In this document: piece by piece, positions 5,585 through 54,919 of the stretch | How the letters are laid out: every line of letters begins with the position of its first letter | How positions within the stretch are numbered: position 1 is the first letter of the stretch | DNA from: Sycobia sp. Sy_11 | Lineage: Eukaryota; Arthropoda; Insecta; Hymenoptera; Epichrysomallidae | NCBI GenBank assembly: GCA_018907035.1 | Contig: JACCIC010000137.1 | Location: forward strand, 868,001 to 932,000 | Length of the DNA: 64,000 nt | Direction of reading: 5' to 3' | The notes under the pieces: generated by a model | What the model saw: only the letters and a program-made list of their open reading frames with translations | The model's database searches: none | What the model was told of the DNA's origin: nothing | Position numbers and translations under genes: made by a program

Positions 5585-6811
5585 TTAGGGGGTTAGTATT
5601 TTTTTTATGTCCGAAACGTGTACTGTGGTTTTCTTCCTGTCGTCCATATCTTCTAGCTCGAAGATAACAGGGGATATTTTCCTGACTATTCGGCATGGAG
5701 CAATAAACTTCGGTGCTAGTTTTGCTGCGAATCTATCCGGCCCTGATGATAATATATGGTTTCTCCTACAATTCGTCTCCTTTTCCTCAAACGAAGCTTC
5801 TCGTCTATTCTTGTTATAATAGCGTGACTGTTTTTCGCTGGCCACACTAAGGTTTTTTCTGACTAATTCATGAATGGCGGATAGTCTCTTCATTCAATTT
5901 AGCCAGTCAGCAGGTGTTAATGGCTGACGTGGTTGGTTTGCTATGCGGATGTTTCTATACGTGGGCACCTCCCTTGGGTTTCTACCGAAATTTAGGAACG
6001 CCGGCGAGGTATTCATGGCAAAGGCTAGTTCGTGTAGGTGGATATCCCAATTTTTATGATCTTCCGTTACAAAGATTGAGATCATGCCTTTGAATGTTCG
6101 GTTTACCCGTTCTACTGGGTTTGCCTGTGCATGATATGGTGCTATCAGCTGTTGCACTATTCCGAGTTCGTCGAGCCGCTGTTTGACTAACTTATTGGCG
6201 AACTCGGCGCCATTGTCAGAGATTAAAAATTTGGGACAACCCCATTTGAATACAACTAGCTCTTCTAGCACCTTAATTATCGTTTACCCCATTGCCTTGC
6301 GGAGTGGTCGAAGCTCCACGTATTTGATAAACAGTTCTTCGAAGATCAAGAGATATCGGTGTTGACCTTTACTGGCTGGAAATGGACCCATTATGTCAAT
6401 GGCCACGCTCGTCCACGGCCCTTCCACATTTCTGTATGTCATCAAACTTTTTGGTGCTCTCTGGGAGACTTCGTATAACTGGCATTCTGGGCAGTGTTTT
6501 ATGTAGCAGTATATATCTCGCCTCATTCCTGGGCAGTAATACTTTCGAGAGACCTTGTATAGTATTTTTTCAACACCAAAATGTCTGGATGTCGGTGTAT
6601 TATAACACTCGACCATTATCCGCTCTCGATCTTTGGAAGAGATGGCAATCTTCCAATCGTCTTCCTCGGGGCCTAGTATGTCCGAGTAGACGCTTGGGCG
6701 ATGTTTCAATAGGATATTGTCTTTAATGCGCCAGTCTGTATATTTCTCTGGGCACTTTCGTATTTTGCTAACTTTTCTTTCATACCAGCTATCTCGCTCT
6801 ATAGTGGTGAT
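5585..6811 (-). pseudogene. Integrase of gypsy element
   Basis: C-terminal part of pol. The zinc-binding domain (HFGVEKIL...CPECQL, about 6,500-6,590), the catalytic core with the three acidic residues in AIDIMG (about 6,400), SDNGAEF (about 6,205) and NPVERVNR (about 6,115), and a GPY/F-like C-terminal segment to 5,585 (ends DIKKILTP) are visible. A stop at about 6,283 separates the first two acidic motifs and the C-terminal part begins in a new frame at 5,893. It would insert the reverse-transcribed DNA; this copy is broken. Confidence 0.88.
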
Positions 6812-7970
6812 GGTAGCTGCTGGTGATGATTCCATGGTAGGGGAACGTGAGAGCGTGTCTGGCACCTTGTACTGTGAGCCTTTTCGGTGGATGATTGTCA
6901 TATTATAGGCCTGCAACGCTGTGGCCCATCTCGCTAGTCTGCCCGTGGGGTTTTTTAGCGTATGTAAACATTTTAGGCTACTGTGATCAGTGATCACTGT
7001 GAACGTTTCTCCCAACAGATAGCCTCTAAATTTCTCGACGGTCCAGAGTACTGCGAGACACTCTTTCTTAGTAACCGTATAGTTTACCTCTGCCTTGGTT
7101 AGTGCCCTGCTCACATAAGCAATAGGGTGTTCTTCATTGTCCGTGTCTTGGCTAAGCACGGCACCGAGGGCGTAGTTGCTGGCATCGGTTTGGGGTATAT
7201 AGGGTCTATTCTGTATGGGGAGCGCTAATACGGATACTTGCGTTAGCAAGATACGCAGTCGGTTAAATGCTTCTTCCTGGGATTTATCCCAGTGCCATCT
7301 CACGTTCTTAATATTCGTTGGTGATGTATATTCCGTAACGGGCTTTAGTTTGTCGGAGTCCGTACGTAGTCCGTCCTTGTCTACCACATATCCTAGGTAG
7401 CGTACCTCCGGTAATAAAACTCAGACTTTTCTTCAATAATTTCTAGTCCAACCTGTTTAAGGCGGGCCAGTACCGCTTCTCATTGCTGAGTATGTTCCAC
7501 GAAAGTATTCGTGGCGATGATGATATCGTCCATGTAGACAAACACGCAGGGTTACCACTGAGGTCCGAACACAACATCCATGCCGCGTTGGAAGCTGGCT
7601 GGGGCGTTCGTCAGCCCGTATGGGATTCTGGTGTATTGAAACAGCCCTTTCTGTGGGACTGCAAAGGCAGTTATTTCCTTGCTTGCGTGATCTAAAGAAA
7701 TCTGGTGATACGCCTGGCTCGAGTCTATCTTAGAAAGATAACGAGCTTCACGCAGATTATCCAATAGGACGTCCATGTGAGGAAGAGGATATGCATCCTT
7801 CTTCGTCACCTGGTTAACTGCCCTGTAGTCAATACAGAATCTGCCGTCCTTCTTCGGCACGATCACCGGACAACTGCTCCATGAACTCTGCGAAGGTTCG
7901 ATAATTCCTTCGGCGAGAAGTCTGTCGACAGCTGCGTGGGCCTGCTTTAATAGTTTATCCGGTATGCGGC
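6812..7970 (-). pseudogene. Reverse transcriptase and RNase H of gypsy element
   Basis: RT motifs run from IVPKKDGRFCIDYR (about 7,820-7,865) through AYHQISLD to FVYMDDIII (about 7,515-7,541), the last with the catalytic Asp pair but in a different frame from the upstream part. RNase H follows with its acidic residues in TDASNYALG, KKECLAVLW, TDHSSL and PDTLSR (about 6,870-7,200). A stop near 7,548 and a frame change near 7,400 break RT. The domain order and the IDYRAVN motif place it in Ty3/gypsy. Confidence 0.9.
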
Positions 7971-8059
7971 GCAGGCGCTGCTTAATAGGTCGGTGTCCTT
8001 ACACGTCTATATGATGAGGGGGCATCTGTGCTGCTAAAGCCGTGATGGCTTTTACTAGT

Positions 8060-8420
8060 GTCTGACTATGTTTTTAGACGTATGCCAAGTCGCTTTGGCG
8101 AAATTAATCGTCATTTCTAACTGTATCACTATATCCATCCCTAGGATGATATCATATGTCAATAAGTTAAACACTCTGAAGCACGTCGAAATTTATTGCC
8201 CATCTATTTTCAGGAGGAGGTCTATTTCTCCGTCGTCGGAACAGATCTGGCCATCTGGCAGCTACATAAACGATGTGATTGGTATGGTGGCTGTTTTCAC
8301 CACCTTTGAAGAACGTGGTCCAATAAATGAATCACGTGCCCCCAGATCGAACAATGCTGGGAATATTTTTCCTAATAATTTTTATTTCAGAAAATCGATT
8401 ATATTTTCTGAATATCGATA
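8060..8420 (-). pseudogene. Aspartic protease (retropepsin) of gypsy element
   Basis: The active-site motif reads LFDLGARDSFI (about 8,315-8,357), a DLG variant of the usual DTG/DSG, and a downstream ILGMD motif (about 8,125) marks the C-terminal part typical of retroviral-type proteases. Stops occur in the frame, and the junction to gag at 8,420-8,517 is not resolved. It lies between the gag zinc knuckles and RT as expected. Confidence 0.75.
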
Positions 8421-8517
8421 TTTCAGAAAAATCGATTGTCGTCCTCTCGAATTGGAGACGTGCGTCGGGAGTCGGTAACGTCCGTGGCTGTAGGTGCGAC
8501 TCCGATAGCCTCTTCCC

Positions 8518-9809
8518 TTAAGCGTTTCCTGAGGTCCTCCTGTTCGGGCCGCAACGCGTGCAGTTTACTGTGGTAACGCCATCTTCGCCGCAATTATAAC
8601 AGAAGATGCGTTTGCGCTCGGGGCATCTATCTGCCCAATGGCCTCGTCTACTGCATATCCAACATGGCCGGTCATCTTCGCCGTGGTTTCTTCGTTCCGT
8701 GCATGGTCGTGGTAACTCACGACGTATACTCTCATATACTGGATATTCATCGTTGCGTTCTCTTGTAGGTGATCGGGGATAATGATTCTGGTCATTGCTT
8801 CCTCGAGCTGGACGATAGTCGCAAGAGGGGCTAGTTAAACGGGTCTTGTTACGTGGCGACGGACTTCTAGGTTTGTATCGTGGTTCGTCGGTTGATTTGG
8901 ATTGGGGCCGAGGGGGTGTTACCGAACGATATCTGGGAGAGGGACTACGGTATTGTTTTTCCCTCGACTCTCTTCTAGATTCTTCCCGTGGTTTCCTGGG
9001 TGCTAGGCTGAGGCTCTTTTTCCGGTTACGTCTACCTGGCGAGGAGCCTTTGCTATGTTCTTTTTTTGTTGTTAATATTGTTGCCGGTGGTTCGACCAAC
9101 GTTACATGTTTTGATCGTTCCTCGTCTAATGCTGCCAGTCTAGATCGTCTGGTCGCTCTTCCAGACTATGGGCAGGCTGCGCTGCTCATTAAGCAGGTCT
9201 CTGCTGCTGGCGGTTCCTTGTAACGACGAGTTAACTCTCTCTCTCTCTCTTGAGTTCTATATGCTGGCCTAGTACCTGCAGCTCGTTTAATGTCTTAAAA
9301 TCTACCCTATTTATCTTGTCGATAAAGGTAGGGTTTAAATTTCGATATACTCTATCGAGTTGTATCTCTGGTGGTAACGGTGGCGACACCTTTCCTAATA
9401 TCGCTCTCATACCGATTAAGTGTGACCCTATTGATTCATTGGAACCTTGCGTCCTATTTCTAAGTTCCTCCTCCAACCGTAATGTGTAGTCAATAGGTCG
9501 GAATTGTTGTCGCAGTGCTGTCTTCAGATGTTTCAGTGTTTGCCATTGTTTGTATATTGGCCTTGCTCATGTACGAGCAGATCCGCATAGTATACCAGGT
9601 ATTAATTTTAATATCTCTGCTGCGGGAATGTTTAGTGTTTCCAAAAAGGCGTCTCAACTCAAATCTGACTAATCTGTCGCGATGAGTTCAATATTATCAT
9701 GCGTTTTGATGTTGTGTAGTCTTGCTTCTTGAGTAAGTTTTTCAGGCGTCATTACTGTGAAAAGGCTATTTAACCTTTTTACCTCGTCGGTTGATGGTTT
9801 TGCTTTCAT
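8518..9809 (-). pseudogene. gag of gypsy element
   Basis: Start chosen at the ATG at 9,809 (MKAKPSTDEVKRL) because the frame carries typical gag helices onward. A second open part at 9,231-9,476 has the capsid-like run PPEIQLDRVYRNLNP. The C-terminal part (9,099-8,518) is Arg/Ser/Pro-rich and ends with a canonical CCHC knuckle (CWICSRRGHWADRC) plus a second cluster CYNCGEDG...CTRC that lacks the His. Frameshifts and at least one stop split the three parts. Gag would form the particle shell and bind the RNA. Confidence 0.85.
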
Positions 9810-18774: not shown

Positions 18775-18890
18775 TACGAGGGTGGATTGATAAGTTTCCA
18801 GCCTGACCTATATAATGTCTCGCTATAATTTAGATTCGGAGAAACGTCACGCCTTTTCCTGTAACACATCAATTATACAGATTTCCCTAT
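18775..18890. mobile_element. Isolated mariner terminal inverted repeat
   Basis: TACGAGGGTGGATTGATAAG and the following 14 bp match, in opposite orientation, the right end of the mariner relic at 33.3-34.5 kb. It is preceded by TA. No transposase follows, so only one end survives; where the fragment stops is uncertain. Confidence 0.7.
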
Positions 18891-18937
18891 CTTGACGATT
18901 TATCGACACTTTACTATTATTCTGTATTAGTCTAGAT

Positions 18938-19460
18938 GTATTAATATTCGAGGAGCGCCTCGTCATTAATACGTCGTTAATTTTATCTCTGATAAAGGAG
19001 CGCCTTTTCTCCGAGGTAAAATCTCACTTTTCATCTTTTAACTTTTTGACGGATTTTACAATTTCTCGGTGGTCGGTATGTATTAATTCGAGGAACGCCT
19101 CGTCATTAATACACATTTAATTTTATCTCTGACAAAGGAGTGCCTTTTCTGAGAGATAAAATGTGACTCTTAATTTTTCACAGATAAACAGAATGCCCTA
19201 CGGAGTTTAATATATTATTACGAGAAGCGCCTCATCGATAATATATTTTCTAATTCTTTTTCTGATAAAGGTCTTTACTCTTTTTCTGACAAAGGTCTTT
19301 ACTCACAAACGCCTTTACTCAGAAATAGAATTTTTCCTTTTTCGTTGGCCTTCTCGAGTGTCGGTCTGTGCGGTAATTCTTGTTAGCAAAAGAGCGCCCT
19401 TTCTTACACAAGAAATTATATCTTCAAACGAGCAAAGGAGCGCCTTTTCATCGTTGAAGA
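18938..19460. repeat. Hairpin array 1 (apical AGCG, paired hairpins)
   Basis: Eight hairpins in four units. In each unit a first hairpin with inner stem CGAGG/CCTCG or a decayed form is followed about 46 nt later by one with inner stem AAAGG/CCTTT; the usual apical loop is AGCG (variants AACG, AGTG, one enlarged). Outer stems differ between units yet stay paired: GTATTAAT/ATTAATAC, ATTTTATCTC/GAGGTAAAAT, TGTATTAAT/ATTAATACA, ATTTTATCTCT/AGAGATAAAAT, AATATATTAT/ATAATATATT, TTTCTGA/TCAGAAA, TTCTTGT/ACAAGAA, TCTTCAA/TTGAAGA. Unit starts are about 18,938, 19,079, 19,209 and 19,377. No coding potential. Function unknown; the pairing pattern suggests structured RNA or DNA hairpins under selection or recent homogenisation. 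Confidence 0.82.
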
Positions 19461-20744
19461 GTTTGCACCAGGAGACGACGGGTCGGTCGGTCGAATTTTT
19501 ATGTTTTTCTTCTTCACTTGAGAGGCTTCACTCCCTTCCTCAGCAAGTTCCGAAAACGAACAGGACATTTATGGAAAAATAACGCACTTTTATACGAACG
19601 GAAAATACGTTATTTCATTTTAAATTATAACTTTGTCGGCTATTATTGGTCGTTTATTTATTTAGTGACCGCTGATAGTACTTAGCTATATTATTATACA
19701 ATACAAGTAAACTAGCTATTATTTAACATTGGATTATGCGCATTATTTATTCACTATACTATATCTATATATCTATAATATCTATTTCTCGCCGCTGAGT
19801 AACACACATTAGAAACTTTTATAAAATACATCTTGTCAAATTCTCAAAAATATTTCATACAACATAATGTTTCTGCATTTACGTATTTTTATGTATTTTA
19901 TGATGTAAATTCAAAATCTGTCGAAAACCATAACGATATTCAGAATCAGCGTTTAAATGTGCTGATTGTACATTTATATATACAGCAATTTTAGCCGACG
20001 GCCTTTACAACAGCAATATAACGCATATAGTAAGCCGATTTTCAGAGTATCAAGCAATAAAACCAAATTACTTTAAACACTTTCGCTTTCCATCTTACTC
20101 GGATGTATTACGACTAATATATCATACTTTGATAATAAGGTATACGCTGTGACGCTCGACTCACATGGGACGCTGTATATTGTGTACGTATATGCACATG
20201 AACTGCATACTTGCACACTTCATGACCTTTTGAAACATTAAATATCTTTTATATGTAAAAACTATAGAAAATACATAATGTAAAATACAAGCTATATATA
20301 CTCATTGTTGCGACACCTCTTCGAATATGCCGAAACTAAATTTCTCTCTTTTTTTATCTACAAGTAGATAGACTATAGGCATTCTAGCACACAGAAATTC
20401 TAGCGCCTCCCCCCTTGAAAAGTCTGCTATGTTCCGATCCAGGGTGTGCAGCAGCGGCGGCCTGACATACTTGACGCGGGAGTACAGTTTAAAAATCGTA
20501 GAATACGTATAGACTTTTTCATTCTGCTTTGAGCAAAGTCTGAAGAAGTAGGAATATGTATTCTCCGTTAGTATACCATGATGCCTATAGCAAAGGCAAC
20601 CACATTATTTGTTTTTTTCTATTTTCTTTTTTCTTTTTTTTTCTTGTTTGCAAATGAAGAACTTATAGTACAGTTTCATGAATTTCACATAGTGTAATGC
20701 ACAATTAGTCTTGTAAATTGGATTATAATATGTGCAAGCAGATG
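19461..20744. other. No gene recognised
   Basis: AT-rich downstream of array 1. A 74-codon frame at 19,358-19,582 overlaps the array and has no domain. No transposon end recognised until the Polinton-like terminus near 20,745. Confidence 0.5.
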
Positions 20745-24596: not shown

Positions 24597-25882
24597 TTAG
24601 GAGTATTAATAAGTCTTTCCCGTTTTTTGTAAGAGATGGCGCCACCAATACTGTGCGAGTATTCAATGGTTACATATGTCATAATCAAAGCTTATTCATA
24701 TGTCAACAATTCCATACTAACACATTAGTTAACATTTTTTCGCATCATAAATTTTTGATATCGTGAAAATGTCGAAATTTGAGCCGAGTCGACGTCATTT
24801 GCGGGAAGTTTCACTTTATTGGTTCAATTTGAAGAAATCTGCTGCCGAGACGCATCGATTGCTTCAGGAGGCTTATGGAGAAGGTTGTGTTGATGATTCA
24901 AGTGTTCACGGAAGGTTTCGACGCTTCAAAAGCGGTGATTTCGACGTGGAAGACAAGGAGCGTTCCGGGCGGCCGCAAATCTTTGAAGATCGAGAATTGG
25001 CGACTTTGCTTGATGAAGATTCTTGTCAAACGCAAGAAGAACTTGCTGAAGCATTGGGAGTTGACCGAACAACCATTTCCAAGCGTTTGAAAGCCATGGG
25101 AATGATCCAAAAGCAAGGAAATTGGGTGCCGTACGAACTGAAGCTGAGAGACGTCGAACGGCGTTTTTTCACTTGCGAACAGCTGCTTCAGCGACAAAAA
25201 AGAAACGGTCTTCTGCATCGTATCGTGACTGGCGATGAAAAGTGGATACGTTACGATAATCCAAAGCGAAGAAAATCATGGGGACTACCCGGCCATGCAT
25301 CATCATCCACGGCCAAGCCAAATATTCATGGCGCCAAGCTCATGCTCTGTATATGGTGGGACCAGCTAGGTGTGGTTTACTATGAGCTTCTGAAAACGAA
25401 TGAAAGGATCACAGGCGAGGTCTATCGACGACAATTGATGCGTTTGAGCCGCGCACTGCGAGAAAAACGGCCACAATACTCCGACAGGCACGACAAAGTT
25501 ATTTTGCAACATGACAATGCTCGCCCACATGTTGCACCGCCGGTGAAAACATACTTAGAAACGCTCAAATGGGAAGTCCTACCCCACCCGCCGTATAGTC
25601 CAGACGTTGCTCCGTCTGATTACCATCTCTTCAGATCGATGACGCATGGCCTGGCTGACCAGCACTTCCATTCCTACGAGAAAGCCAAAAAATGGGTGGA
25701 TGACTGGATAGAGGCCAAACCGGTCGAATTTTTCCGCAACGGGATTCGTATGTTGCCAGAAAGATGGGAAAAAGTTGTAGCTAGCGATGGCCAATACTTT
25801 CAATAATTCATTTGTAACCATTTTTTCACAATAAAGGCTCAAAATTTGAAAAAAAACGGGAAAGACTTATTCACATACCTGA
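24597..25882 (+). mobile_element. mariner copy 1 (young family)
   Basis: 1,286 bp, flanked by TA on each side. Left terminus TTAGGAGTATTAATAAGTC, right terminus complementary to TCAGGTATGTGAATAAGTC; both continue TTTCCCGTTTTTT. Nearly identical to 56,210-57,497, 61,692-62,977 and 63,356 onward. Confidence 0.97.
24769..25806 (+). CDS. mariner transposase, full length
   Basis: 345 aa, the usual mariner length. I take the ATG at 24,769 (MSKFEPSRRH); two codons upstream a GTG is in frame but is not needed. N-terminal paired helix-turn-helix domains (residues about 1-110, linker SGRPQ), then the DD34D catalytic triad: Asp in TGDEKW, Asp in HDNARPH and Asp in APSDYHLF with exactly 34 residues between the last two. 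WVPYEL and YSPDVAPSDYHLF are mariner signatures. Sequence pattern is closest to the Mos1/mauritiana-cecropia type. In the first HTH the otherwise conserved Trp (xRWFxRFKSG in relatives, RGW in copy 3) is Arg (HGRFRRF), shared with copy 2, so activity is uncertain although the frame is intact. Confidence 0.95.
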   Translation: MSKFEPSRRHLREVSLYWFNLKKSAAETHRLLQEAYGEGCVDDSSVHGRFRRFKSGDFDVEDKERSGRPQIFEDRELATLLDEDSCQTQEELAEALGVDRTTISKRLKAMGMIQKQGNWVPYELKLRDVERRFFTCEQLLQRQKRNGLLHRIVTGDEKWIRYDNPKRRKSWGLPGHASSSTAKPNIHGAKLMLCIWWDQLGVVYYELLKTNERITGEVYRRQLMRLSRALREKRPQYSDRHDKVILQHDNARPHVAPPVKTYLETLKWEVLPHPPYSPDVAPSDYHLFRSMTHGLADQHFHSYEKAKKWVDDWIEAKPVEFFRNGIRMLPERWEKVVASDGQYFQ

Positions 25883-26589: not shown

Positions 26590-27655
26590 ACGAGTGCCGT
26601 AGATTTATAAATTAAACAAGGCAGAAGTAGAGAATGAATTAGAATTACACAGATTAATTACCTAGGGTACTCTTATAACCTTGGGACATCGTTCATCCTA
26701 TTGAAAGAAAAATCCGTTGATAAAGAAGATTATAACGAAAATCTCGACAGAACTAAGGATATAGAAGTGATGGAAAATGAGTTCAAATGCCTGCAACAAC
26801 AATCCAACAACAGATAATAAATGTAGCCAGTGCCAACCGGATATCAAGTAATAGATCTGATAACACCGCTCCTGCGTTAGTTATTCTACAGACGACTTCT
26901 GTACAAAACACGGCAAAAGTATTATATCAGATGAGAAAGTGGGGATGTTACTTTGAAGATTTATATTCATTTCTGGAAAGAGTGCTCGAACTGCAACGTC
27001 TCTCGCATGATCAAATTCTAGCAGGTTTTCTTGAGTTACTGAAAGTACGCCACAAATTTATATACGTTAACAAAACTAGAAGACGCTCTTCGAAAATTTT
27101 ATCGATCGTCTTGTGAACTGAGGCATCTTGATACACAAATACACAATAAGATACAAGAATCCAGTGAGAATATACGTAATTTTACACACTCATGCATCAC
27201 GTTGATGCGAAGACGAGGAGACTTGAGCTTGTTTTCAAACATGAAAGCAGAAAGTCGTTTCCATATTAGCGCGACAATGTTCAAAATACTACCGATATAA
27301 TTCAGCATGTAGAAGAATTACGAAAAACGAAAAGACCAAAGCAAAAGAAGAAGATTTATCAAAAGTACATAAGACAAGTAATTATAGATATAACCGTAGA
27401 TTATAAAATCCTAAATATATACTGACAAGCTCGTTAGCTCTGATTTATGAAAGACAAAAATACTGTTGGAGATGCAAACAAAAAGGATATGGTAGGACAT
27501 TTAAATGTCCAAATCGATCGAAGGTTTTTTGTTCATATTGCGAAAAAGACGATATCTACACCAGAAACTGTAAATTCCATACGCCGAGAAACCACCCGCC
27601 GATGGAGTCAACGCCGAATTCAGCTCGGCCCAAACAGTAAAACAAGAAAAAGATA
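26590..27655 (+). pseudogene. gag of relic C
   Basis: Early part LNKAEVENELELHRL (about 26,613) lies in one frame; the capsid region from 26,936 (MRKWGCYFEDLYSFLERVLE) in another. The nucleocapsid follows at about 27,458-27,572: a first cysteine cluster CWRCKQKGYGRTFKC in which the His is replaced, and a second CSYCEKDDIYTRNC with Ile at the His position. Stops and shifts throughout. The two-cluster layout matches the other gypsy elements here. Confidence 0.75.
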
Positions 27656-27659
27656 ATAG

Positions 27660-29955
27660 AATCTTTGTTAAAGTAATGACTGGAGATTTTGAGGTGGCAG
27701 CCCTACTTGACACAGGCTCCGTAAGTTCCTATGTAAGGGAAAAATTCGCAAATGTATGTAATCGATATAGTTCGCATCATGAACCAAGCAATCGTATTGC
27801 CGTTCTCGCCACTGGCATCGACATAGCTCAAAAATGTCATCACAGGTTACATTTATTTAAGTTTTCTCGTGATGAAAGGGCTCAAACAACATATGTTACT
27901 AGGAATGGATGCTCACCATAATTTAAATATAAAACTATAGTTAAACGGACAGGAAATATTCCAGAAAGAAAAAGTCTAAACTCATCAAGTATGTACAACA
28001 GAAAAGCCCAGGGGATTCAAAAATTTAATAAAAGGGAAAAAAACAATTAAAAATAGTTATAAATATCGAGATGAACAAACTTGATGATGTTAGGGGGCCA
28101 ACAGCGTTAATAAGTCATAACATAGTGCTAGAAACTAAAACTCCGTTCAAACAGAAATATCAACCCCGAAATCCAGAGATAGAGGAATTCATCAAAGAAG
28201 AAGTCGATAAAATGCTAAAAAAATGTAATACGATTCTTTAGCAGTTCGTGGATTTCATCAGTAGTTATTATCAAAAAGAAAGATGGCAAAGCACTATCGC
28301 AATATTAGGTAAGTTACGAGGAGCCAAGTATTTATCTGCAGTTGAATGAAAAAATAGATATCGGTAAGTAGTTCTATTATCTGAAAAACAATTGTTCGAA
28401 TTTAACTTTATGCCATTCGAATTACACTCCCAGCGATATTTCAACGTCTACTAGAACGCGTTTTCACGTCAGAATTAGCCCCACATGCTTTCGCTTACCT
28501 AAATAATATTGTAGTTGTATCAAGAACGTATCCAGAATATTTCTAACTATTTCATAAAGTATTTCACCGATTCGATCCGCCTGTTCAAAACCAAATGTGG
28601 ATAAATGCGAATTTTTTCGTTTCAGTTTGAAGTATCTTAGACACATAATTGAACAAAACGGCCTCTAAAACGTTCCATACAAGGTTTCCGCCATGTTAAA
28701 TCTTTCTTCGCCAAGAGACAGTAAATAAATACGGCGATTCATTGGCTTAATATTATGATACCGATGATTTTTGAAAGATATATCAAATGTTGCTGCTCCA
28801 TTGCATATACTCACCAGAAAAAAAGCCAAATGTAATTATGGCGAAACTGAACAGAAAGCATTTAACAAAAATAAACGATTGCTTACGAATGCACCGGTAC
28901 TCGCTTGTTCAGACTGGAATAGATACTTTACTCTGCAAACCGATGCGAGTAAAGATAGTTTAGGTGTGGCTTTAACACAAACATATGGTGAAACAGAACG
29001 AGTTATTGCATTCGCCAGTACAAGTTTGACTGCTCCATAGAAAACTTATTCTGCCACCAAATTAGAATGTCTCAATATCAAAGTTTCCATATTATTTAAA
29101 AGGATATCATTTTATCGTCTTGGCGAATTACGAATCACTAAAGTAGCTTAACCAAATAAAAAGTCCGTGTGGTCGTCTAGCTGGCTGGGCCCTTGAACTG
29201 AGTCAATATGATGTCGAGATGAAATACAGGCCAAGGACGGATAAGCTACTGACAGATACTTTATCTAGAAAACCGCTGGAAGTAGATGCAAATGACATAA
29301 AAAGCAAAGATTGTTGCGAAAGATTCATTAGGAATGTAGAAAATGAAACAAAAAACTTTCCAGACTTTTTTATAATAAACGAACAAATGTATAAATACAC
29401 CTTTGACACACAAGACTTTATCGACACAGCAGAAAACCAACAATGGAAAATATATGTCCCAAAAAAATTAGAAACGTATATTGAAAGAGGTTTATGATGA
29501 ACTGGTTGCAGGACATTTGGGAGTCGCTAAAATCTTATCACGAATAGCCAAAAAGTACCAGGAATGTTACGAGAAAGTATTGTATATGTAAGAAATTGTG
29601 TTAACTGTGTTTATTGTCAAATTTAAGGTACAACAATAAACTGATGCAGGTATCTTACATGCAATTGTAGTCACGGAAAACCATGGAAAACAGTGGCTGT
29701 CGATCTAGTAGATCCACTTGCAAGATCGGCGAAAGTGATTATTATTAATGCATAACAAATTTACGAAATGGATCGAAATACAAGCACTATATAAAGCTAC
29801 ATGAAAAGCTGTTACCCATGCAATTAATAAGAAAATCAATGTAAGGTTTGGTTGTCCTAAAACTATAATCTCATATAATAAACGACAGTTTACGAGTGTG
29901 CATTTTTCGAGGCGGATAAATATATATGCCACACTCCATGCAAGTAATCTTAAGG
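27660..29955 (+). pseudogene. pol of relic C
   Basis: Protease with an intact LLDTGSVSSYV motif (about 27,706-27,738). RT is heavily decayed: KKKDGKA is recognisable near 28,276, and the YxDD box reads AYLNN (about 28,492-28,506), both Asp lost. RNase H is the best-kept part (28,771-29,040; LQTDASKDSLGVAL), followed by a tether region to 29,497. The integrase zinc domain (AGHLGVAKIL, about 29,508) and core (FGCPKTIISYN, about 29,848) follow before truncation near 29,950. In the core the second Asp motif (SDNG) is SYN. Confidence 0.85.
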
Positions 29956-34475: not shown

Positions 34476-34532
34476 AGTTCTTAAAAACGTTGTTTTTCTT
34501 GGTCAGGCCGGAAACTTATCAATTCACCCTCG

Positions 34533-35164
34533 TAGCTGATGCTGTATCAATTGCGCTATAACCATCATCAATACTGGATTGATTAATTGCATAAGCAGGA
34601 TGCAACAGCTTGAATACTTAATTATAATTTTCAATAATAAGATTACTAGGTCTGCTCTATTAAATCGACGAATATGTACACTGACAGATTAAATAATATT
34701 AGTAATTAATTGATAATCATATCGTAGTACAGTAATAATCCCCGTACGGCGAAATAACTGACAATCCAAATTTTTTTTTACACTTTATAAGGTACAAATT
34801 GTAAAATTGTACAATTATGATATAAATTACTTAGAAATGATTTTTTTCATTAGTTCTAAATTTATACTCGATATTTATAACAAGAATAATTAATAGAGTA
34901 GTGCACCTGTCTCAAAAAAATATTATACTAACTTAAATACGATACTTAAATACTTATAACTTAAGTACGCTACTAATATAACTTTGTTAAATAATATTTA
35001 TGATTTATATATAAATTAATTATAAATATTTTTTATGCAGAGTTTAGAAAGAAGAAAATTATTTTTAAACAAGTTCTGAAAAATAATTGAAAAATTCAGA
35101 AAACTACTTCAGACCTCATTATAGCATTATAATAGTCGTACGTAGCTGTAGATTAATTTTTTTG

Positions 35165-47026: not shown

Positions 47027-47669
47027 AATGACTAAGAATGATTTCTTTTAGTTTTACTATTGTTTTTATAGGTATATAAATACTCCCTCCATTCCACTTT
47101 AAATTAAATACATACATATGTGCAATTCATATATTATATAAATTAATTTGAAATTAGATTTTCTGTAAACTATATAATCGCTATATGTTTTTTCTTTAAA
47201 GCAACAATCATCTACTTTCTTGTTAAAGTAAAATTTTTCATCACAACAGCTGTACATATTGATTTTCCATAGGAAGGGTGCCCATAACAAAAGAAATTTC
47301 CCCACAACGTTTTCCGATATTGATTTTTTCTGAACTTTTTCCAACTATATAGCAGTTTGATGCAGCGAATTTAGGCAGTATAGTTTTCAATCTTGAACTA
47401 TTCGAGCTTTTCTAACTTTATCGCAATTACGAAGCAGCAAGTATAGACGGTATAGATTTCAATTTTGAAGTGTTTCCAGTTTCACGTTTCTTATATGTGC
47501 ATATTTGTGTGACTGGTTATTATCTGTTTTGTGGCTGATATTTATCTACTAACGTTATAGTAGAAACTAAATTATAGTGGAATAGTTATTTTAAAAATAT
47601 ACATTGTTTTAATTATATTTTCTTGAAAAAGGAAATAAAGAAAAAAATTGTTGAGTGTTGTGAAGCATT
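47027..47669. promoter_or_regulatory. Divergent intergenic region with a direct repeat
   Basis: Separates the minus-strand gene from the plus-strand polymerase. An imperfect direct repeat of about 75 bp (GCAGCGAATTTAGGCAGTATAG at 47,360, described by its first 20 bases GCAGCGAATTTAGGCAGTAT, and GCAGCAAGTATAGACGGTAT at 47,432) lies in it and could hold promoter elements. The minus-strand frame at 47,344-47,099 has only a TTG start and is not called. Confidence 0.45.
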
Positions 47670-50600
47670 ATGGCATTCCTCAAACATTATCAGGATGCTA
47701 TTCAACGCCTTCAAGAATCCTGTCTGTTTGCATCTAGACAAATGGCTGACGGAGAGGATATTGTTCGATGGATGAATTATGCATCTGCAGCAGTTAGATC
47801 GATAACAAATCTAATGACTCATTCTAGAATTGCATCTGAGAAGCATCGACGTATTACACTTCTGAATCATTTTCAGAGTGTTTATTGCAAATTGGATTGT
47901 TACGCTAAACAAGGTGACGACTTATCGCAAAAGGAGGATAAAAAGGTAACTTGGAGTGATATTCAATCCACTTTTAACAATTGCATAAAATCTGGAATTG
48001 TAACGAATATCAAACATCAAGCTATTCGTACATTTTTAGAAGATGCATTTGAATTGGTTGAGAAGCAGATAAAAATATCGTTACAAAATCATTCATCACT
48101 TAAAATGAATACGATTCTGTCTGCTGAGTATATTAGATCGAAAAACTCAGAGCAGAGAATAGAAATCAAATATTTTAATACAAAAAATGCGAAAATATTT
48201 GAGACCACAAATTTAAAAGATTGGTATGCAACGCATGTCCAAAAACCCATCCAGCGTGATACGGATGAGTTTCAAGAGATAGATTTTGGCTGGACGTTGC
48301 ATTCAATTATTAATTTAGCAATAAATATTTATAAATTTAACCCAATAAAAGGTAGTTCATACATAGCACTACTTGAAGTAATTGAAAAAAAACAGGCATG
48401 TGTTAATATAAAAAATAACGATGACCAATGTTTTAAATGGGAAGTTTTGTCTCCCTTATATCCAGTTAAAGTAAATAGTAATCGAGTTTCAGCATATAAG
48501 CAGTATGAACATATGCTTAATTTTAAGGATATTGCCTTTCGAATGAAGACAAAAGATATACTTAATTTGAACAATACAATCAAAATATTTCCATTAACTT
48601 ATATATGCTAAAAAAGAAGAAGAAAAATATCTTTGATGTATCTCCGTGTTATATAACATCTAGAAAAAAGCAAAAGCATGTGAATTTATTAATCATACAA
48701 GATGATTATAATGATGAAGAAGAAAGTGTAAATAGAAGCGTAAATAATGAAGATCCCCCAGCTCGTTACCACTATGTATGGATTAAGAATTTGTCTCGCT
48801 TGATAAGTTCTCAAGTCACAAAACGTAATGGGAAACTTCATCTGTGTGACACATGCTTACATTATTTTCTATCTAAAGAAAAATTAAACTTACATATTAT
48901 CGATTGCCAGGAAAAAAATTATTGTAAAATAAAATTACCCACAGAGAAGAATAATATTTTAGAATTTAAAAACTTTTCATTCAAAGAGCGTGTACCATTT
49001 GTGATATATGCAGATTTTGAATGCATGCTAGAAAAAATAGATGATCACAAGTATGCAAAACAAAAACATAATCCAATGAATATTGGGGTTTATATAAAAT
49101 GTAATTTTGTTGAGAAACAGTGTGAATACCGAAGCTACAGACAAACAGATAAAGAAATAGGACCATCACCTGCTGAATGGTTCACACAACAATTGCAAGA
49201 GTTTTCAGTAAAAATAACAGTGGTATACCAGAATGCAAAGCCGATGAATCGACTGACAGACATTGAAACTTTAAACTATGAAACAGGAAAAGATTGTCAC
49301 ATTTACGAAAAAAATTTTCATTGTTTAGATAATAAAGTTCAAGATCACTGTCATCTTACAGGATGGTAAGTATATTTTAGAGTTTTATGTTAGCAGTTTT
49401 ATAAAATTTAAATATCGATTTCAGATACCTCAATCCTGCACATAACTCGTGTAATTTGAATTATAATGTTTCCAAAGTTATAACTGTTATATTTCATAAT
49501 TTATCGGGGTATGATGCGCATTTATTTATTAAAGAACTTGCAACAAATTTTGAAGGACGTGTATATGTTCTCCCGGAAGATAAGGAAAAATATATATCAT
49601 TTATAAAATATATACAAGACATGGATATTAGTTTTAGATTTATCGATTCATAGAAGAGCATAGAATTTTAGAAAATACTTTTAAGATGGACTTTCGATCA
49701 AACGAGCAAATTAGATTAGTTAAATGAAAAGGTGTCTTCCCATACGAATATATTTCATCATTTGATAAATTACAAGAAATGGAAATGCCAGTCAAAGATG
49801 CATTTTACAGTAATTTATACAATTCCACTATTACTGATGAAGACTATCAGCATGCTAAACAAGTATGACAAGATTTTGATATTCAAACACTTGGTGAATA
49901 TTCCGATCTATATTTAAAAACTGATGTATTGCTCATTGCAGATGTATTCAAAAACTTTAGAGATAATTACATTCAAGCATATCATCTTGATCCTGCTTAT
50001 TATTATACCACTCCGGATCTATCGTGGGATACAATGTTAAAATATACAAAAATAAAATTAGAATTGCTTACCGATATTGATATGTTGATGTTTATCGAAA
50101 GAGGTATCAGGGGTGGTATTAGCCAATGTTCGAACCCCTATTCAAAGGCGAATAATAAATATATGGATAATGAGTTTGATGAAACGAAGGAAAATAAATT
50201 TTGCTCTACTATGACGTAAACAATCTTTATGGTTGGGCAATGACACAATATCTTTCTTACGGAGGTTTTGAATGGGAACAAAATATAGACAATGAATCCA
50301 AATTTCTGAAAACATCAGATGAATCTCCTACTGGATATATTCTAGAGATCGATTTAAAATATCCAAAAAATATTCATGATTTACATAAAGATTTACCACT
50401 GTGCCCCGAACATGTTGCAGCACCAGGAAGTAAAATGAAGAAACTATTAACAACTTTATATAATAAAAAACGCTATATAATTCACTAGAGAGCATTGCAA
50501 CAAACAGTTAACACTTAAAAAAGATACATAGAGTATTAAAATTTAATCAGAAACCATGGCTTAAAGACTATATTGATTTAAATAGCGAAAAAAGAAAACA

Positions 50601-51494
50601 AGCAAAAAATGAGTTCGAAAATTATTTTTCACATTTTTAAATAATTCTATTTATGGAACAATGGAAAATGAAAGGAAATTTGTAGATGTGAAGCTAGTGA
50701 ATAAATGGCATGGACGTTATGGTGCAGAAGCACTAATAGCAAGTCCAAATTTTCACAATTGTTCAATTTTTGATGAAAATTTCGTTGCTGTAGAGTTACA
50801 AATAGCTGAAATTCAGATCAGAAAACCTATTTATGTTGGACTGTCTGCATTAGATTTGTCGAAAACAATAGTTTATAGATTTCACTATGAATACATGCAA
50901 AATAGAGTGGGTTGTAACTGTAAATTATTACCTACAGATACTGATAGTTTGGTATATGAAGTAAAACACATTAATATGTACGATTTGATGCGGGAGGACA
51001 TTCATGAATTCGATACATCAGATTATCTGCAGAATTATCCTTATAAAATACCGCAAAAAAATAAGAAAATTATTGGACTGATGAAGGATGAATGTAATGG
51101 TAAAATTTTAACAGAATTTATTGGATTGCGGAGTAAAATGTACAGTATGAAGATTCAAGGACAAAAACAGATTAAGAAAGCCAAGGGTGTTAAAAGTACT
51201 ATAGTGAAAACTACAATTAATTTTGAAGATTATGTTCATTGCTTGGAAGAAAGATCCATTATCCATATAGATCAATATAATATTCGATCGAGACTTCATA
51301 TTATACATACAGAAAAACAAAAGAGAATTGCCTTAAATCCATTTGATGATAAGCGTTTTATAAAAACGGGATCAACAGATACTCTTCCATGGGATCACAA
51401 CAGCATACGAGAACATGAACGTGCATTAAATGATGGAGTCGCTAGAGAAATGAGAGGCGACAATGCAAACGAACAAATATTACAACACCATTAA
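47670..51494 (+). pseudogene. Protein-primed DNA polymerase B (Polinton type)
   Basis: Start ATG at 47,670 (MAFLKHYQDA). N-terminal extension (about 175 codons), then the family region from KDWYATHVQKP. A frameshift at 48,605-48,611 leads to the exonuclease domain: Exo I with DFEC (about 49,010-49,023), a CxxC zinc-like pair (CDTCLHYF), and after a 59-nt intron Exo II NLSGYDAH (about 49,498-49,521). A stop at 49,651 and frame changes follow. Polymerase motif [11 protein letters not shown] (about 50,204-50,234), motif B-like NNSIYG (about 50,639) and motif C PTDTDSLVY (about 50,932-50,955) are kept; a KMYS motif (about 51,136) and WDHNSI end lie before the stop at 51,494. It would replicate the element from a terminal protein. 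Catalytic residues survive but the frame is broken in at least five places. Confidence 0.92.
49366..49424 (+). other. 59-nt spliceosomal-type intron in DNA polymerase B
   Basis: GTAAGTATATTTTAG at the start and ATCGATTTCAG at the end interrupt the conserved block HCHLTG / YLNPAHNSCNLNY. Removing it restores the family's contiguous zinc-binding region except that the codon spanning the junction becomes TGA; a single A-to-T change in an original AG|A (Arg) would explain that. Length and signals match short insect introns. Confidence 0.75.
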
Positions 51495-51508
51495 CTGAAC
51501 AAGTTGCA

Positions 51509-51808
51509 ATGAGAATACATGGAGACAAGGGCAGTAGTCACTTAGTAGAACAGTCGACTAAACAAGTTATAACATGCATTGGAGACAAGGCTAGCTACTC
51601 GATTTTACAAGGATCATCAGAACTAATCGGAAGAGAAACGAGAAGCGGAGAGCGAGAAAGCTTACATAAACGGCGGTCGAGCTCAATCGATATGGAGGGG
51701 GAAGATGGAGGGGATATAGACCTTATGGAGGGGGAAGTACGACCAAATAAACGAAACTGCAGAAAGAGATCAGTTATTCAGTGTTTAGTTATTGATTGTA
51801 ATTATTAG
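51509..51808 (+). CDS. Hypothetical Polinton ORF
   Basis: 99 codons from an ATG just downstream of the polymerase, in another frame. Hydrophilic with a short internal GDKGS/GDKAS duplication and two copies of MEGE; at the DNA level ATGGAGGGGGAAG occurs twice. No recognised domain. It may be a degenerate continuation of the upstream gene. Confidence 0.35.
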   Translation: MRIHGDKGSSHLVEQSTKQVITCIGDKASYSILQGSSELIGRETRSGERESLHKRRSSSIDMEGEDGGDIDLMEGEVRPNKRNCRKRSVIQCLVIDCNY

Positions 51809-51844
51809 CAAGCAGTATTTCGTTCAAAGATAATCATATATATA

Positions 51845-51985
51845 ATGGAACATAGTCTTGAAATGACGTTCCCTGGTGTCGAGTCGTCTACTCAATTAAT
51901 TGCGCAGCTAACGGCTGCCGATTTCATTTCGAATTTTAATGAAGACTTGTACACATTACTAAATAATTTTAAGATAAAAAGTTAA
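51845..51985 (+). CDS. Hypothetical small Polinton ORF
   Basis: 46 codons from ATG (MEHSLEMTFPGVESSTQLIA) to TAA, 21 bp before the next gene. No domain recognised. A TTTTACAG acceptor-like sequence directly precedes the next ATG, so the two could be exons of one transcript, though no donor is obvious. Confidence 0.35.
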   Translation: MEHSLEMTFPGVESSTQLIAQLTAADFISNFNEDLYTLLNNFKIKS

Positions 51986-52006
51986 ATAATTTATATTATT
52001 TTACAG

Positions 52007-52306
52007 ATGGATTTGAAAACATTGAATAATATAGCACGAGGTGGTTATCTACTCACAAAAAAATTTGGCGAATTCAAAAGAAATCAAAATTACATGATCA
52101 CAAAAATAAAAAAAGTTAACACTAAATTCGGATGGAAATCAGTAGTCGAAATTGATAGTGAATTTCAGTGTTTTTTACTGTATATAATTTCGAAGGCGTT
52201 AATCAAATACGAAAGCTTCTTCAATAATATGTGTGAATATGCAAATAAATTAAAGTTGTTCATAAAATGTATAGGTGAAGATAATTTTGAATTCATCACA
52301 GTATAA
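52007..52306 (+). CDS. Conserved small Polinton protein, OB-fold-like
   Basis: 99 codons from ATG (MDLKTLNNIARGGY). The pattern of short strands VNTKFGWKSVVEIDSEFQCF followed by helices and a C-terminal FEFITV resembles small companion proteins of insect Polinton-like elements; I infer a single-stranded-DNA-binding-like (OB) fold from the strand pattern only. It is the one small gene here with an undamaged frame. Located between polymerase and the oppositely oriented integrase, tails facing. Confidence 0.5.
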   Translation: MDLKTLNNIARGGYLLTKKFGEFKRNQNYMITKIKKVNTKFGWKSVVEIDSEFQCFLLYIISKALIKYESFFNNMCEYANKLKLFIKCIGEDNFEFITV

Positions 52307-52483
52307 ACAAAAAAAATATATGTATATGTGTGTATTTGTGTAAGATAATATATCACAGTCTAACTATATGTATAATGTGAAATAAATTAAACAACATTTT
52401 TTTATCTTAACTATAGCTGTGTTTATTTATTCTCGTTGTATACAAAATTATTTTACATATTCTGATTTTATAATTTATTATCA

Positions 52484-53378
52484 CTTTAGTCGTACACTCT
52501 TTATTAGTCCAACTATTATGAGAACTATCAAATCCAAGCCACTTGACAAAAACTTTATCCCCTCGACGTTTAAGAATTTTTTCAATGAGGTAAGTAACAG
52601 CTCTTGTTCATAGAAAGATCCAGCGATGGGTTGATTTTATTGATCTTTTAAATGGTAAGTTATTGGATTCGTTGCTGCAATCCTGCAAATGGTGAATACT
52701 TCTGTAGACCAGTTAGGTGTATATACTTTCTCAAAACTCTGCTTTAGTTTACTCACTCTTACTTTATCTCCAACCTTAAATTTATTAATTTTTCCCCCTT
52801 ATTTTTACTCTGCTAAGTAAGATTCTTAAAATTTTTGCTTTATTTGCAGATGTAACATCATTTAGCTTGACTCCGATAGTTCTATGCTTTGTCGCATTAT
52901 AAGAAGTTATTAAATTCGGTAAAATATCAATTCACTTATAATTTCCGCGGAGACTAAACTGTATCCACATTTTTTCTTTCAAAGTACGATTGAAACGTTC
53001 GCATATAGATGCTTTGAGATTACTATATGTTGAGTATAGATTAATTTTATTTTTTCTCAATTTTATTTCTTTCAAGCCTGGGCGTATACTTTTTGGTATA
53101 CGCCCACGCTTGAGAATAGTATTAAAAGCTGCTGTCACGCCTTTACCACTTTTTCGTATCAAGGGTATAGCCCATGCAAATTTTCATAAGCTATCGATGA
53201 CTGCAATCATGTATTTGAATCCTTTATTTTCTTGAGCATAAGGTTGCATTTCCACAAGATCTTCTTGCCATGTCTCATCTATATCATGTAGTTCAAATTG
53301 TCGTCGAATATAATTTCGACGAGCAGGCTTATGAATTTCCCTCACTATATCCATTTTTTCTTTGTTTGAATAATTCAT
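52484..53378 (-). pseudogene. Polinton integrase with chromodomain, catalytic region lost
   Basis: Begins MNYSNKEKMDIVREIHK at 53,378. WQEDLVEMQPYA carries the first catalytic Asp and GFKYMIAVIDS follows. The segment with the second Asp (HTDRGKEF in relic 2) is absent: at 53,072-53,113 the sequence turns back on itself in a near-perfect palindrome. The third motif SICERFNRTLK keeps its Glu (about 52,985-53,017). A stop follows RGNYK; the remainder to the C-terminus is broken, ending with a chromodomain (KILKRRGDKVFVKWLGFDSS, about 52,510-52,580). The integrase would join element ends to host DNA, but this one cannot. Confidence 0.9.
53072..53113. repeat. Palindrome replacing the integrase catalytic segment
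   Basis: TCAAGC-C-TGGGCGTATAC on one side and GTATACGCCCA-C-GCTTGA on the other pair 17 of 18 positions around a 6-nt loop. One arm encodes the genuine KRGRIPKS integrase segment; the other is its inverse copy and displaces the second acidic motif. Confidence 0.85.
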
Positions 53379-53450
53379 TGTGTGTTTTTCCTGCTAACTC
53401 TATAACATGTTTTACCTTGCTATTAATAGAAATCAATTCACGTCTAATTT

Positions 53451-53774
53451 TTATTTATACGCATAGAATGATATTTTTGAATCAGCAATTATTTTTTCTA
53501 ATTCTGCAATAGATGGTGGTATTGCTGATAAAACATCGATTTTTTCATTTATCTCGCTTAAAAGTTTTAATAAGTTTGAAGTTTCCTCTTGCACATAAGT
53601 TCTCAATGTATCTAAATCAACAGCATCATTTAATTTAACTGGCGGTGAGAGATTACAGAGTCGTTTATTTTCCAAATCATATTGACTATCATATGTAAAT
53701 TTAAATCCAACGCCAGGTGGACCTTGACTGCCTTCAGTTTTTTCCAGCTTCCGTCCGAATACGTCGACACTCAT
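53451..53774 (-). CDS. Fibre-like protein (GPPG and NKRL-DAV motifs)
   Basis: 107 codons from ATG at 53,774 (MSVDVFGRKLEKTEG). A collagen-like GSQGPPG precedes YDLENKRLCNLSPP and DAVDLDTLRTYV, a pattern like the N-[KR]-x-x-N-x-x-x-P-x(4)-DAV motif repeated in viral and phage tail fibres. The rest is predicted coiled coil (LLKLLSEINEKI). I infer a trimeric spike or fibre. It is immediately upstream of integrase on the same strand, 72 bp apart; the C-terminus may be truncated, since relic 2 continues further. Confidence 0.55.
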   Translation of the reverse strand: MSVDVFGRKLEKTEGSQGPPGVGFKFTYDSQYDLENKRLCNLSPPVKLNDAVDLDTLRTYVQEETSNLLKLLSEINEKIDVLSAIPPSIAELEKIIADSKISFYAYK

Positions 53775-53806
53775 TATTAAACTGATTGGAGTATTATGTT
53801 TATATG

Positions 53807-53959
53807 TTAATATATAAGACTAGTCTCACGCAACTCCCCGATAATAGAGTATATTTCATTCGCGTAACTCTGATTTCTCGCAGATCTCTCAGCCAACAAA
53901 ACCCTGAGTCGATTTACTAAATCATTCGGGTTATCCACGTATACATAGTCTAAGGGCAT
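53807..53959 (-). pseudogene. C-terminal fragment of the coiled-coil protein
   Basis: 50 codons (PLDYVYVDNPNDLVNRLRVL ... SLIY, stop at 53,807). By family context this is the C-terminus of the protein whose N-terminus is at 22,352 in relic 2; the N-terminal part is missing here. A further stretch to about 54,030 (TKKGGGI) lies in another frame and belongs to it. Confidence 0.55.
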
Positions 53960-54084
53960 ATTTTTTGTATAATTTTAAATCGAGGTAAAATACCTCCTCC
54001 TTTTTTGGTAAACATTGGTAAAATAATTTCTAAAAAATTTTTATTTTTCATTACACGAATTCCTTTATTCTTATCGTAATCTGT

Positions 54085-54540
54085 TTGTGTCTTAAATCAA
54101 AGAACACAAATTTGGCCGAAAAGGCTGCTGCAATGAAACTTAAAGCAAAGTTAAGAATGGAATTAAAGCAGAAAAATAACAAACTGCCTGGTAAAACCAA
54201 TAAATCAACCTTGAAAAAAATAATTAAATCTGTTGCATATTCAATAATTCCAAATACAAATTCTCAAAAACTAGTTCGCTCTGCATTAAAGGGTGCTCGC
54301 GAAGTCGTTAAAAAGGCCGGAGGTAAAGCCAATGTTACAATTCCAAGGATATTGACACTTCTTCAAAAACTTAGCGGTTTCAGTGCAACTGGAACATTGG
54401 CAGGGGATGCTGATAAAATAGCAAAAGCTATTAATGATGTAAAAGCAGCAAAGCAAGAGTTGGAAGAAAATCGAAGACATAATAAAACAATGTAAGCAAT
54501 TGCTCTTTGAAAAGGTCTTTATTTGAAACCTCACAAAAAA
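54085..54540 (+). pseudogene. Minor capsid (phospholipase-like) gene, C-terminal fragment
   Basis: Open from a TTG at 54,085, so the true N-terminus with the phospholipase-like domain is missing. CLKSKNTNLAEKAAAMKLK, GFSATGTLAGDADKIAKAIN and KQELEENRRHNKT align with the fuller gene at 60,997-61,530. After a stop the frame continues with GLY-K-x-Y repeats (KGYGVYLKLYK, GRGLYFKAYKG) that look like cleavage sites for the adenain-type protease (inference). Role by family: internal or minor virion protein. Confidence 0.7.
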
Positions 54541-54890: not shown

Positions 54891-54919
54891 AATGGATTTA
54901 TATTATTGCGTTATGTTAT

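What the first reader, a model, noticed from the sequence alone, without database searches (positions are those of the whole stretch)
18938..19460. Array of paired hairpins with conserved AGCG apex and compensated outer stems
Seen directly: four units, each with two hairpins about 46 nt apart (inner stems CGAGG/CCTCG then AAAGG/CCTTT), eight hairpins in all. Outer stems of 7-11 bp are nearly all perfect but have different sequences in different units (for example GTATTAAT/ATTAATAC against AATATATTAT/ATAATATATT), so pairing is kept while sequence changes. That is the signature of selection on a folded RNA or DNA shape, or of repeated duplication with re-pairing. I know of no transposon terminus or ncRNA family with this layout.
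Basis: partly seen in the sequence, partly recalled or inferred. Interest (0 to 1): 0.8.

Follow-up and report, generated by a model that had tools for sequence, protein, structure and literature searches.

The report
Hairpin array in insect retrotransposon LTR
The eight hairpins are part of a worn copy of the terminal repeat of a retrovirus-like mobile element, and related elements carry hairpins with the same tip on stems of different sequence, so the fold itself seems to matter, perhaps for handling or packaging the element's RNA.

Summary
The array (window 18938-19460) is the middle of a truncated, decayed long terminal repeat (LTR, typically 1.63-1.73 kb, TGTAACG...CGTTACA) of a Ty3/Gypsy retrotransposon: 40 of 370 candidates in the 621-Mb genome were scored, 48 matches. 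One full element has two array-bearing LTRs, primer site and polypurine tract. The element's sense strand is the window's MINUS strand. There a typical hairpin is: outer stem 8-15 bp, GA, five inner pairs ending GG, loop CGCU, CC..., one purine, outer stem. Some other copies hold a fifth pair.

Copies of this family decay almost neutrally: no clear covariation, no G.U excess. The case for selected structure rests on comparing different hairpins and related gypsy families. There 18 of 22 tips (octamer GGCGCTCC, at most one mismatch) in LTR stretches of other families sit on hairpins, against 10 of 138 elsewhere; 17 distinct hairpins pair in 111 of 115 outer positions (49% re-dealt). Rfam: no match.

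Most likely a structured cis-acting RNA element of the retroelement. Packaging/dimerisation and RNA export or stability are the leading functions; neither is tested, and the place in the transcript (U3 or R) is open. New variant of a known kind.

The parts
18815..19813 (-). Truncated copy of a Ty3/Gypsy long terminal repeat (sense = minus; LTR start near 19813, copy broken off at 18815)
   Evidence: match of the window to other copies ends near 18815 in most comparisons and near 19814; LTR ends, TSDs, PBS, PPT in other copies
19422..19459 (-).
19377..19414 (-). Hairpin H2 (unit 4, first); inner stem AAGGG type, worn here
19252..19332 (-). Hairpin H3 (unit 3, second) with a duplicated piece in the apex that the other 32 aligned copies lack
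19209..19247 (-). Hairpin H4 (unit 3, first); inner stem pairs fully only on the minus strand here
19120..19162 (-). Hairpin H5 (unit 2, second)
19079..19113 (-). Hairpin H6 (unit 2, first)
18980..19022 (-). Hairpin H7 (unit 1, second)
18938..18972 (-). Hairpin H8 (unit 1, first)
19587..19594 (-). Candidate TATA box (sense TATAAAAG), about 130 nt upstream of H1; if used, the array lies in R. A second candidate, in the part of the LTR missing from this copy, would put the array in U3
   Evidence: sequence; TATAAA at LTR 215-265 in 12 of 20 copies, at 1290-1360 in 9 of 20
18775..18808 (+). 34-bp mariner terminal repeat abutting the broken end of the LTR; not part of the array
   Evidence: 94% match to 34501-34534, beside a mariner-like ORF

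Best explanation
The array is the hairpin-rich middle of a decayed LTR of a Ty3/Gypsy retrotransposon (shown). In this group of elements the LTR is read on the strand that is minus in the window, and its RNA would carry several hairpins, often in closely spaced pairs, with the tip GG-CGCU-CC on stems whose sequence varies but whose pairing is kept (shown by comparing hairpins and families, not by RNA data). A fixed tip on free stems is what a protein or loop-loop recognition site in folded RNA looks like (inferred). The job that I put first is marking the element's RNA for its own Gag, that is packaging and/or dimerisation, comparable to the tetraloop hairpins of retroviral leaders; loop positions 2-3 are a self-complementary GC in most hairpins (inferred; about 30% for this job, lowered from 35% after one search showed that the array may lie in U3, so at the 3' end of the RNA only). 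The window copy itself is dead and probably does nothing.
For: LTR identity: interspersed copies, ends TGTAACG...CGTTACA, exact 4-bp target duplications in 4 of 11 copies with both ends located, against 1 of 110 mismatched combinations (3 of the 11 run on into the element and should show none), PPT and pol on the array-minus strand, full element on contig C347 with array-bearing LTRs on both sides and a primer binding site. Structure: 52 distinct H3-H8 pieces from 10 copies pair in 92.9% of cells against 70.8% shuffled, 0 of 500. Tips tested without asking for pairing: in LTR or presumed LTR stretches of families F2-F5 18 of 22 (exact tips 12 of 13) lie on hairpins, against 10 of 138 (6 of 32) in background sequence. 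17 distinct hairpins of four families: inner pairs beyond GG/CC 50 of 50 (60% re-dealt), first seven outer pairs 111 of 115 (49% re-dealt, maximum 70%). 103 sense and 2 antisense hairpins in 30 LTR stretches, 0.1 expected. Corresponding hairpins change on both sides: CGGG/CCCG and CAGG/CCTG (F2, F4); GCGG/CCGT, GTGG/CCAT, GAGG/CCTC and CTGGTT/GACCAG, CTAGTT/GACTAG (F5).
Against: Across 33 copies of the family no clear covariation, and G.U about equals A.C (144 and 138; 46 and 34 over 51 distinct hairpins), so wobble pairs do not prove the RNA strand. In one search two measures (pairs changed on both sides, pair types) are not above shuffles, because there are few stem types. The hairpins were found by tip and pairing, so their fixed GG/CC and part of their pairing are built in. 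In F1 57 of 144 near-tips do not sit on a hairpin. In F5 the hairpins lie upstream of every TATAAA of the LTR, so the place in the RNA may differ. 6 of 14 related stretches showed none. One model-found hairpin (F4_d) has loop TAAA. No RNA data; Gag binding, dimerisation and packaging not testable here.
Confidence: 0.75

Rival explanations
1. RNA export, stability or translation element: hairpins in the transcribed 3' LTR recruit a host RNA-binding protein that carries the unspliced RNA out of the nucleus or protects it, like the constitutive transport element of simple retroviruses (recalled).
For: The 3' end of the RNA is the one place that would hold the hairpins in F1, F2 and F5 whichever TATA box is used. 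Several copies of the site.
Against: Nothing specific; no host factor for this tip is known to me; Rfam has no match.
Confidence: 0.28
2. TAR-like control of transcription: hairpins near the start of the nascent transcript with an asymmetric purine internal loop and a fixed loop bind a factor that boosts elongation.
For: If the TATAAA at LTR 215-265 (12 of 20 F1 copies) is used, the F1 array begins about 100 nt after the start; 2+1 internal loop in 12 of 17 hairpins.
Against: A second TATAAA at 1290-1360 (9 of 20 copies) would put the array upstream of the start, and in F5 all TATAAA lie downstream of the hairpins.
Confidence: 0.07
3. DNA-level element: the palindromes act as double-stranded or cruciform DNA sites, for example an insulator or repressor site array like that of Drosophila gypsy (recalled).
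For: Wobble counts do not favour RNA; the array may lie in U3, which is promoter DNA.
Against: A double-stranded site needs no paired flanking stems; the tip has one orientation relative to pol in 103 of 105 cases, though many are copies or duplicates of each other.
Confidence: 0.13
4. Neutral product of mutation: template switching keeps near-palindromes perfect, and unequal exchange multiplies them; no function.
For: Copies of the family show no clear covariation; unit number varies between copies and between the two LTRs of one element.
Against: Palindrome repair would not by itself tie one octamer tip to hairpins in several families (18 of 22 against 10 of 138), nor confine them to LTRs.
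Confidence: 0.1

Closest known systems
GACG-tetraloop hairpins of alpha- and gammaretroviral packaging/dimerisation regions
   Same: Hairpins with a fixed tetraloop, in neighbouring pairs in gammaretroviruses (pairing recalled), in non-coding RNA of an LTR element; PMC516450 (passages seen) says that GACG tetraloops are involved in packaging and may add to dimerisation
   Different: Loop is mostly CGCU/CGCA/UGCU, not GACG; up to five pairs, inside the LTR; U3 or R is open; no Gag binding shown
Cis-acting RNA of Ty1 and Ty3
   Same: Ty3 is a member of the same family of elements; PMC4974528 (passages seen) says that Ty3 RNA localisation and packaging depended on UTR or POL sequences and that Ty3 RNA structure was uncharacterised
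   Different: No repeated hairpin array is mentioned in the passages seen
Stem-loops of long R regions in retroviral LTRs
   Different: Here eight to ten hairpins share one tip, and it is open whether they lie in R
HIV TAR hairpin
   Same: Asymmetric internal loop and fixed loop, in R (recalled)
   Different: F5 hairpins lie upstream of TATAAA; many copies; no transactivator known
Drosophila gypsy insulator (Su(Hw) site array)
   Same: Tandem sites in non-coding sequence of a Ty3/Gypsy element (recalled)
   Different: Linear DNA sites without required paired flanks (recalled)

Membership tests
Ty3/Gypsy LTR retrotransposon (Metaviridae) | LTR with short inverted ends TG...CA | tested here: met
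   TGTAACG...CGTTACA or close variants in the copies printed
Ty3/Gypsy LTR retrotransposon (Metaviridae) | short target-site duplication (4-5 bp) | tested here: met
   exact 4 bp in 4 of 11 copies with both ends; control 1 of 110
Ty3/Gypsy LTR retrotransposon (Metaviridae) | two LTRs around gag-pol, with PBS and PPT | tested here: met
   C347 element: LTRs in L082 and L030, PBS next to the 5' LTR, PPT next to the 3' LTR
Ty3/Gypsy LTR retrotransposon (Metaviridae) | order protease-RT-RNaseH-integrase | tested here: met
   order of pieces in L030; RVT_1, RT_RNaseH and Integrase_H2C2 above cut-off, Asp_protease just below it
Gammaretroviral double-hairpin packaging motif | GACG tetraloop | tested here: not met
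   none of 17 hairpins has it; loops are CGCT 10, TGCT 2, CGCA 2, AGCT, CACA and TAAA 1 each
Gammaretroviral double-hairpin packaging motif | bound by Gag/nucleocapsid | not testable with these tools
   needs a binding assay
TAR | at the 5' end of the nascent RNA in R | tested here: inconclusive
   two candidate TATA boxes in F1; hairpins upstream of every TATAAA in F5
Any Rfam 15 family | covariance-model score at gathering threshold | tested here: not met
   0 matches in the window and in L029, L067, L072, L073, L078
mariner MITE | array bounded by mariner terminal repeats | tested here: not met
   many other copies match each other for hundreds of nt beyond the point where the window copy stops; the mariner end marks the break of this copy

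The most novel reading that the evidence does not exclude
The hairpins are a repeated-tetraloop packaging and dimerisation code of a group of insect Ty3/Gypsy elements: up to five double hairpins per LTR, each with a GG-CGCU-CC tip recognised by Gag or by kissing through loop GC, carried at one or both ends of the RNA and free to change everything but the tip. It would be a defined, modular packaging signal in Metaviridae.
Probability: 0.27. Interest if true: 0.7.

Novelty: new variant of a known kind. Interest (0 to 1): 0.5.

Why it matters
Packaging and export signals of Ty3/Gypsy elements are poorly known (PMC4974528 called Ty3 RNA structure uncharacterised in 2016; passages seen). A hairpin that keeps a short tip while its stems turn over between families gives a clear handle: tip and stem swaps would show whether packaging, dimerisation or export is served. 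It also offers a structural tag for finding LTRs of this group. I found no description of it in nine answered paper searches, seen as listings: three held no paper, six listed papers on other things (20 of 40 and 10 of 21 shown). Only openly licensed PMC papers are held.

Tried and rejected
Rejected: mariner origin (terminal repeat only at the break of this copy); an Rfam family; simple AT repeat expansion (stems carry GC tips; 11 other loop orders give 0-1 hits); viral origin (a 16-mer of the core hit 19 IMG/VR stretches, not followed up and taken as chance or terminators; longer motifs none; no relative of the integrase piece). My early idea that wobble pairs in this copy prove the minus strand failed on the full data. 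SECIS and K-turn readings were considered by eye and dropped. A loose hairpin descriptor was swamped by TA repeats. Not answered: genome-wide count of paired tips, and of F5 copies.

Full report
What is there. Single hairpins fold with z between -1.4 and -6.5 against letter shuffles, either strand; the region folds better than all 100 dinucleotide shuffles. Units 1 and 2 are tandem copies, 84% identical. Unit 3 is worn and carries a duplicated piece in one apex; unit 4 has other outer stems.

It is an interspersed repeat. A search of the window's own genome (621 Mb, 472 contigs) gave 48 matches from 40 scored candidates out of 370, so the count is a lower bound; other places that match most of the array do so at 77-84%, shorter ones at 85-89%, and seven fragments of 30-59 bases at 86-100%. 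Flanks align for about 840 nt on either side of the array start in many copies. Ends are TGTAACG and CGTTACA or close variants. Of 20 long loci, 11 had both ends located; 7 of these are 1.63-1.73 kb, the rest shortened or interrupted; 4 have an exact 4-bp target duplication against 1 of 110 mismatched combinations; 3 of the 11 (L030, L034, L040) run on into an internal region and should show none.

It is a Gypsy LTR. Right of the array in L030 and L034 lie protease, reverse transcriptase, RNase H and integrase pieces on the array-minus strand (in L030 RVT_1, RT_RNaseH and Integrase_H2C2 above cut-off, Asp_protease just below). A purine tract with AAAAAAGGGG abuts the LTR of L030. On contig C347 a second array-bearing LTR lies about 5 kb further on, followed in sense by TGGCGCCCGAACAGGGAT, a primer binding site of the lysine-tRNA type (type recalled). 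The two LTRs match at 92% over 713 and 77% over 1105 columns, so this copy is old. In C132 only 41 nt of the second LTR were found. The window copy lacks its sense 3' part: it breaks off near 18815 beside a mariner terminal repeat. Named relatives of the reverse transcriptase come first from the ants Lasius niger and Ooceraea biroi, then a Trichogramma wasp and the ant Cataglyphis niger (120 of 3203 listed); the host itself is unnamed.

Anatomy on the sense (window minus) strand. 33 of 40 copies were aligned (7 left out as too incomplete). A typical hairpin is outer stem 8-15 bp, two nucleotides mostly GA, five inner pairs ending GG, loop CGCU, CC and partners, one purine, outer stem; H1 and H2 have a bulge in the outer stem. 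Order: H1 H2, H3 H4, H5 H6, H7 H8. A fifth pair lies about 270-290 nt further on, with inner stem TCAGG/CCTGA in the first and CGAGG/CCTCG in the second; at least one of its two hairpins was found in 6 of the 10 copies scanned for it.

Place in the transcript. TATAAA occurs at LTR position 215-265 in 12 of 20 F1 copies and at 1290-1360 in 9 of 20; AATAAA at 1480-1560 in 9 of 20. With the first TATA box the array lies about 100 nt after the start, in a very long R, and so at both ends of the RNA. With the second it lies in U3, and so only at the 3' end. In F5 all TATAAA lie downstream of the hairpins (U3); in F2 they lie on both sides. I cannot decide.

Is the fold selected? Hardly visible inside the family. 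In 33 copies, 128 pairs, 91.1% of cells pair against 91.0% in shuffles (117 of 500 reach it); 16 pairs change on both sides (13.1 expected, 112 of 500); covariation score and pair types are slightly high (44 and 23 of 500). G.U and A.C are equal, 144 and 138. Substitution rates are 0.066-0.070 in stems and 0.096 in unpaired columns, not corrected for base content. One subfamily step, U-A to U.G (5) to C-G (3), is seen in H5. So these are mostly dead copies.

It is visible between hairpins. All 52 distinct, gap-free H3-H8 pieces from 10 copies pair in 92.9% of cells against 70.8% shuffled (0 of 500), and 181 cells change on both sides against 73.5 (0 of 500); the numbers of pairs changed on both sides and of pair types are not above shuffles, since there are few stem types. 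A first count on 30 of the 52, picked by hand and leaning to the less worn, gave 95.6%.

And between families. From 150 integrase matches (1933 candidates) I fetched 14 stretches downstream of pol. Sense hairpins with the tip (at most 2 mismatches) were found in 8 of 14 (L067, L068, L069, L070, L072, L073, L076, L078) and not in L071, L074, L075, L077, L079, L080, where I did not establish that the LTR lies in the stretch. F2 (integrase 73-75% identical) has tcagaag AA CGGG CGCT CCCG A cttctga, a GAAAAGG/CCTTTTC hairpin and a CGAGG/CCTCG hairpin 48 nt after it, close to the 45-46 nt of the window. F4 (L069, 79%) has the first of these with CAGG/CCTG. F5 (49-54%) has a tandem array with inner stems GCGG/CCGT, GTGG/CCAT and GAGG/CCTC in different hairpins; its LTR status rests on a second copy of the LTR upstream, 92-97% alike. 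LTR limits in L070, L076 and L078 are presumed.

Counts without building in the answer. When every tip (octamer, at most 1 mismatch) is taken and only then tested for a hairpin, 18 of 22 in F2-F5 stretches have one (exact tips 12 of 13) and 87 of 144 in the worn F1 copies (47 of 68), against 10 of 138 (6 of 32) in 365 kb of background, both strands, which included the 19 IMG/VR stretches fetched by a hairpin-like core and so leans high. With the tip and an outer stem of at least 5 bp asked for, 30 LTR stretches give 103 on the sense strand, 2 on the other, 0.1 expected; F4 gives 0; 12 control stretches give 0 sense and 3 antisense. For 17 hairpins chosen by hand, one per type (H7, H8 and rows of L068, L070, L073, L076 and L082 dropped as near-duplicates), pair 3 has four pair types, outer stems pair in 111 of 115 of the first seven positions against 49% re-dealt (maximum 70% of 2000), inner pairs beyond GG/CC 50 of 50 against 60%; the list was found by tip and pairing and split on the sense strand, so it shows variety of stems, not an independent test. 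Copies are not independent anywhere here.

Mechanism. One tip tied to stems that change but stay paired, on one strand of a transcribed repeat, points to recognition of folded RNA. I put Gag-mediated packaging or dimerisation first: loop positions 2-3 are GC in most hairpins (G 15 of 17, C 16 of 17) and could kiss; retroviral GACG tetraloops are linked to packaging and dimerisation (PMC516450, passages; a two-G-C kissing complex by Kim and Tinoco is seen there only in the reference list). Export or stability through the 3' LTR is nearly as likely. None of this was tested.

Known or not. Rfam 15 has no match. Nine answered paper searches gave no report of such an array (listings only, and passages of three papers). 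The kind, structured cis-acting RNA in an LTR, is known; this hairpin family is, as far as I could search, a new variant.

Noticed in passing
window 24751-25806 (+), 56364-57398 (+), 61768-62823 (-): Three very similar mariner transposase ORFs in one window (351, 344 and 351 codons from stop to stop); Pfam Transposase_1 and HTH_48 in the first.
   Followed up: partly
window 47664-54891 (+): By eye a Polinton/adintovirus-like stretch: a DNA_pol_B_2 match at 49869-50216; four other ORFs tested there have no Pfam match above cut-off.
   Followed up: partly
window 60997-61578 (-): ORF that by eye resembles the phospholipase region of parvovirus-like minor capsid proteins.
   Followed up: no
window 5894-9566 (-) and 27574-29497 (+): Pieces of two further gypsy elements: the first with RT, RNase H and integrase H2C2 matches, the second by eye only (no Pfam match). 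No tip hairpins near them at <=1 mismatch.
   Followed up: partly
L072 (C5:368800-371600) and L083 (C5:375300-378300): The two LTRs of one F5 element differ in the number of hairpin units, so arrays seem to grow or shrink by recombination.
   Followed up: partly
L034 (C132:75100-85000): An F1 LTR with an extra pair of hairpins from a tandem duplication in the array.
   Followed up: no
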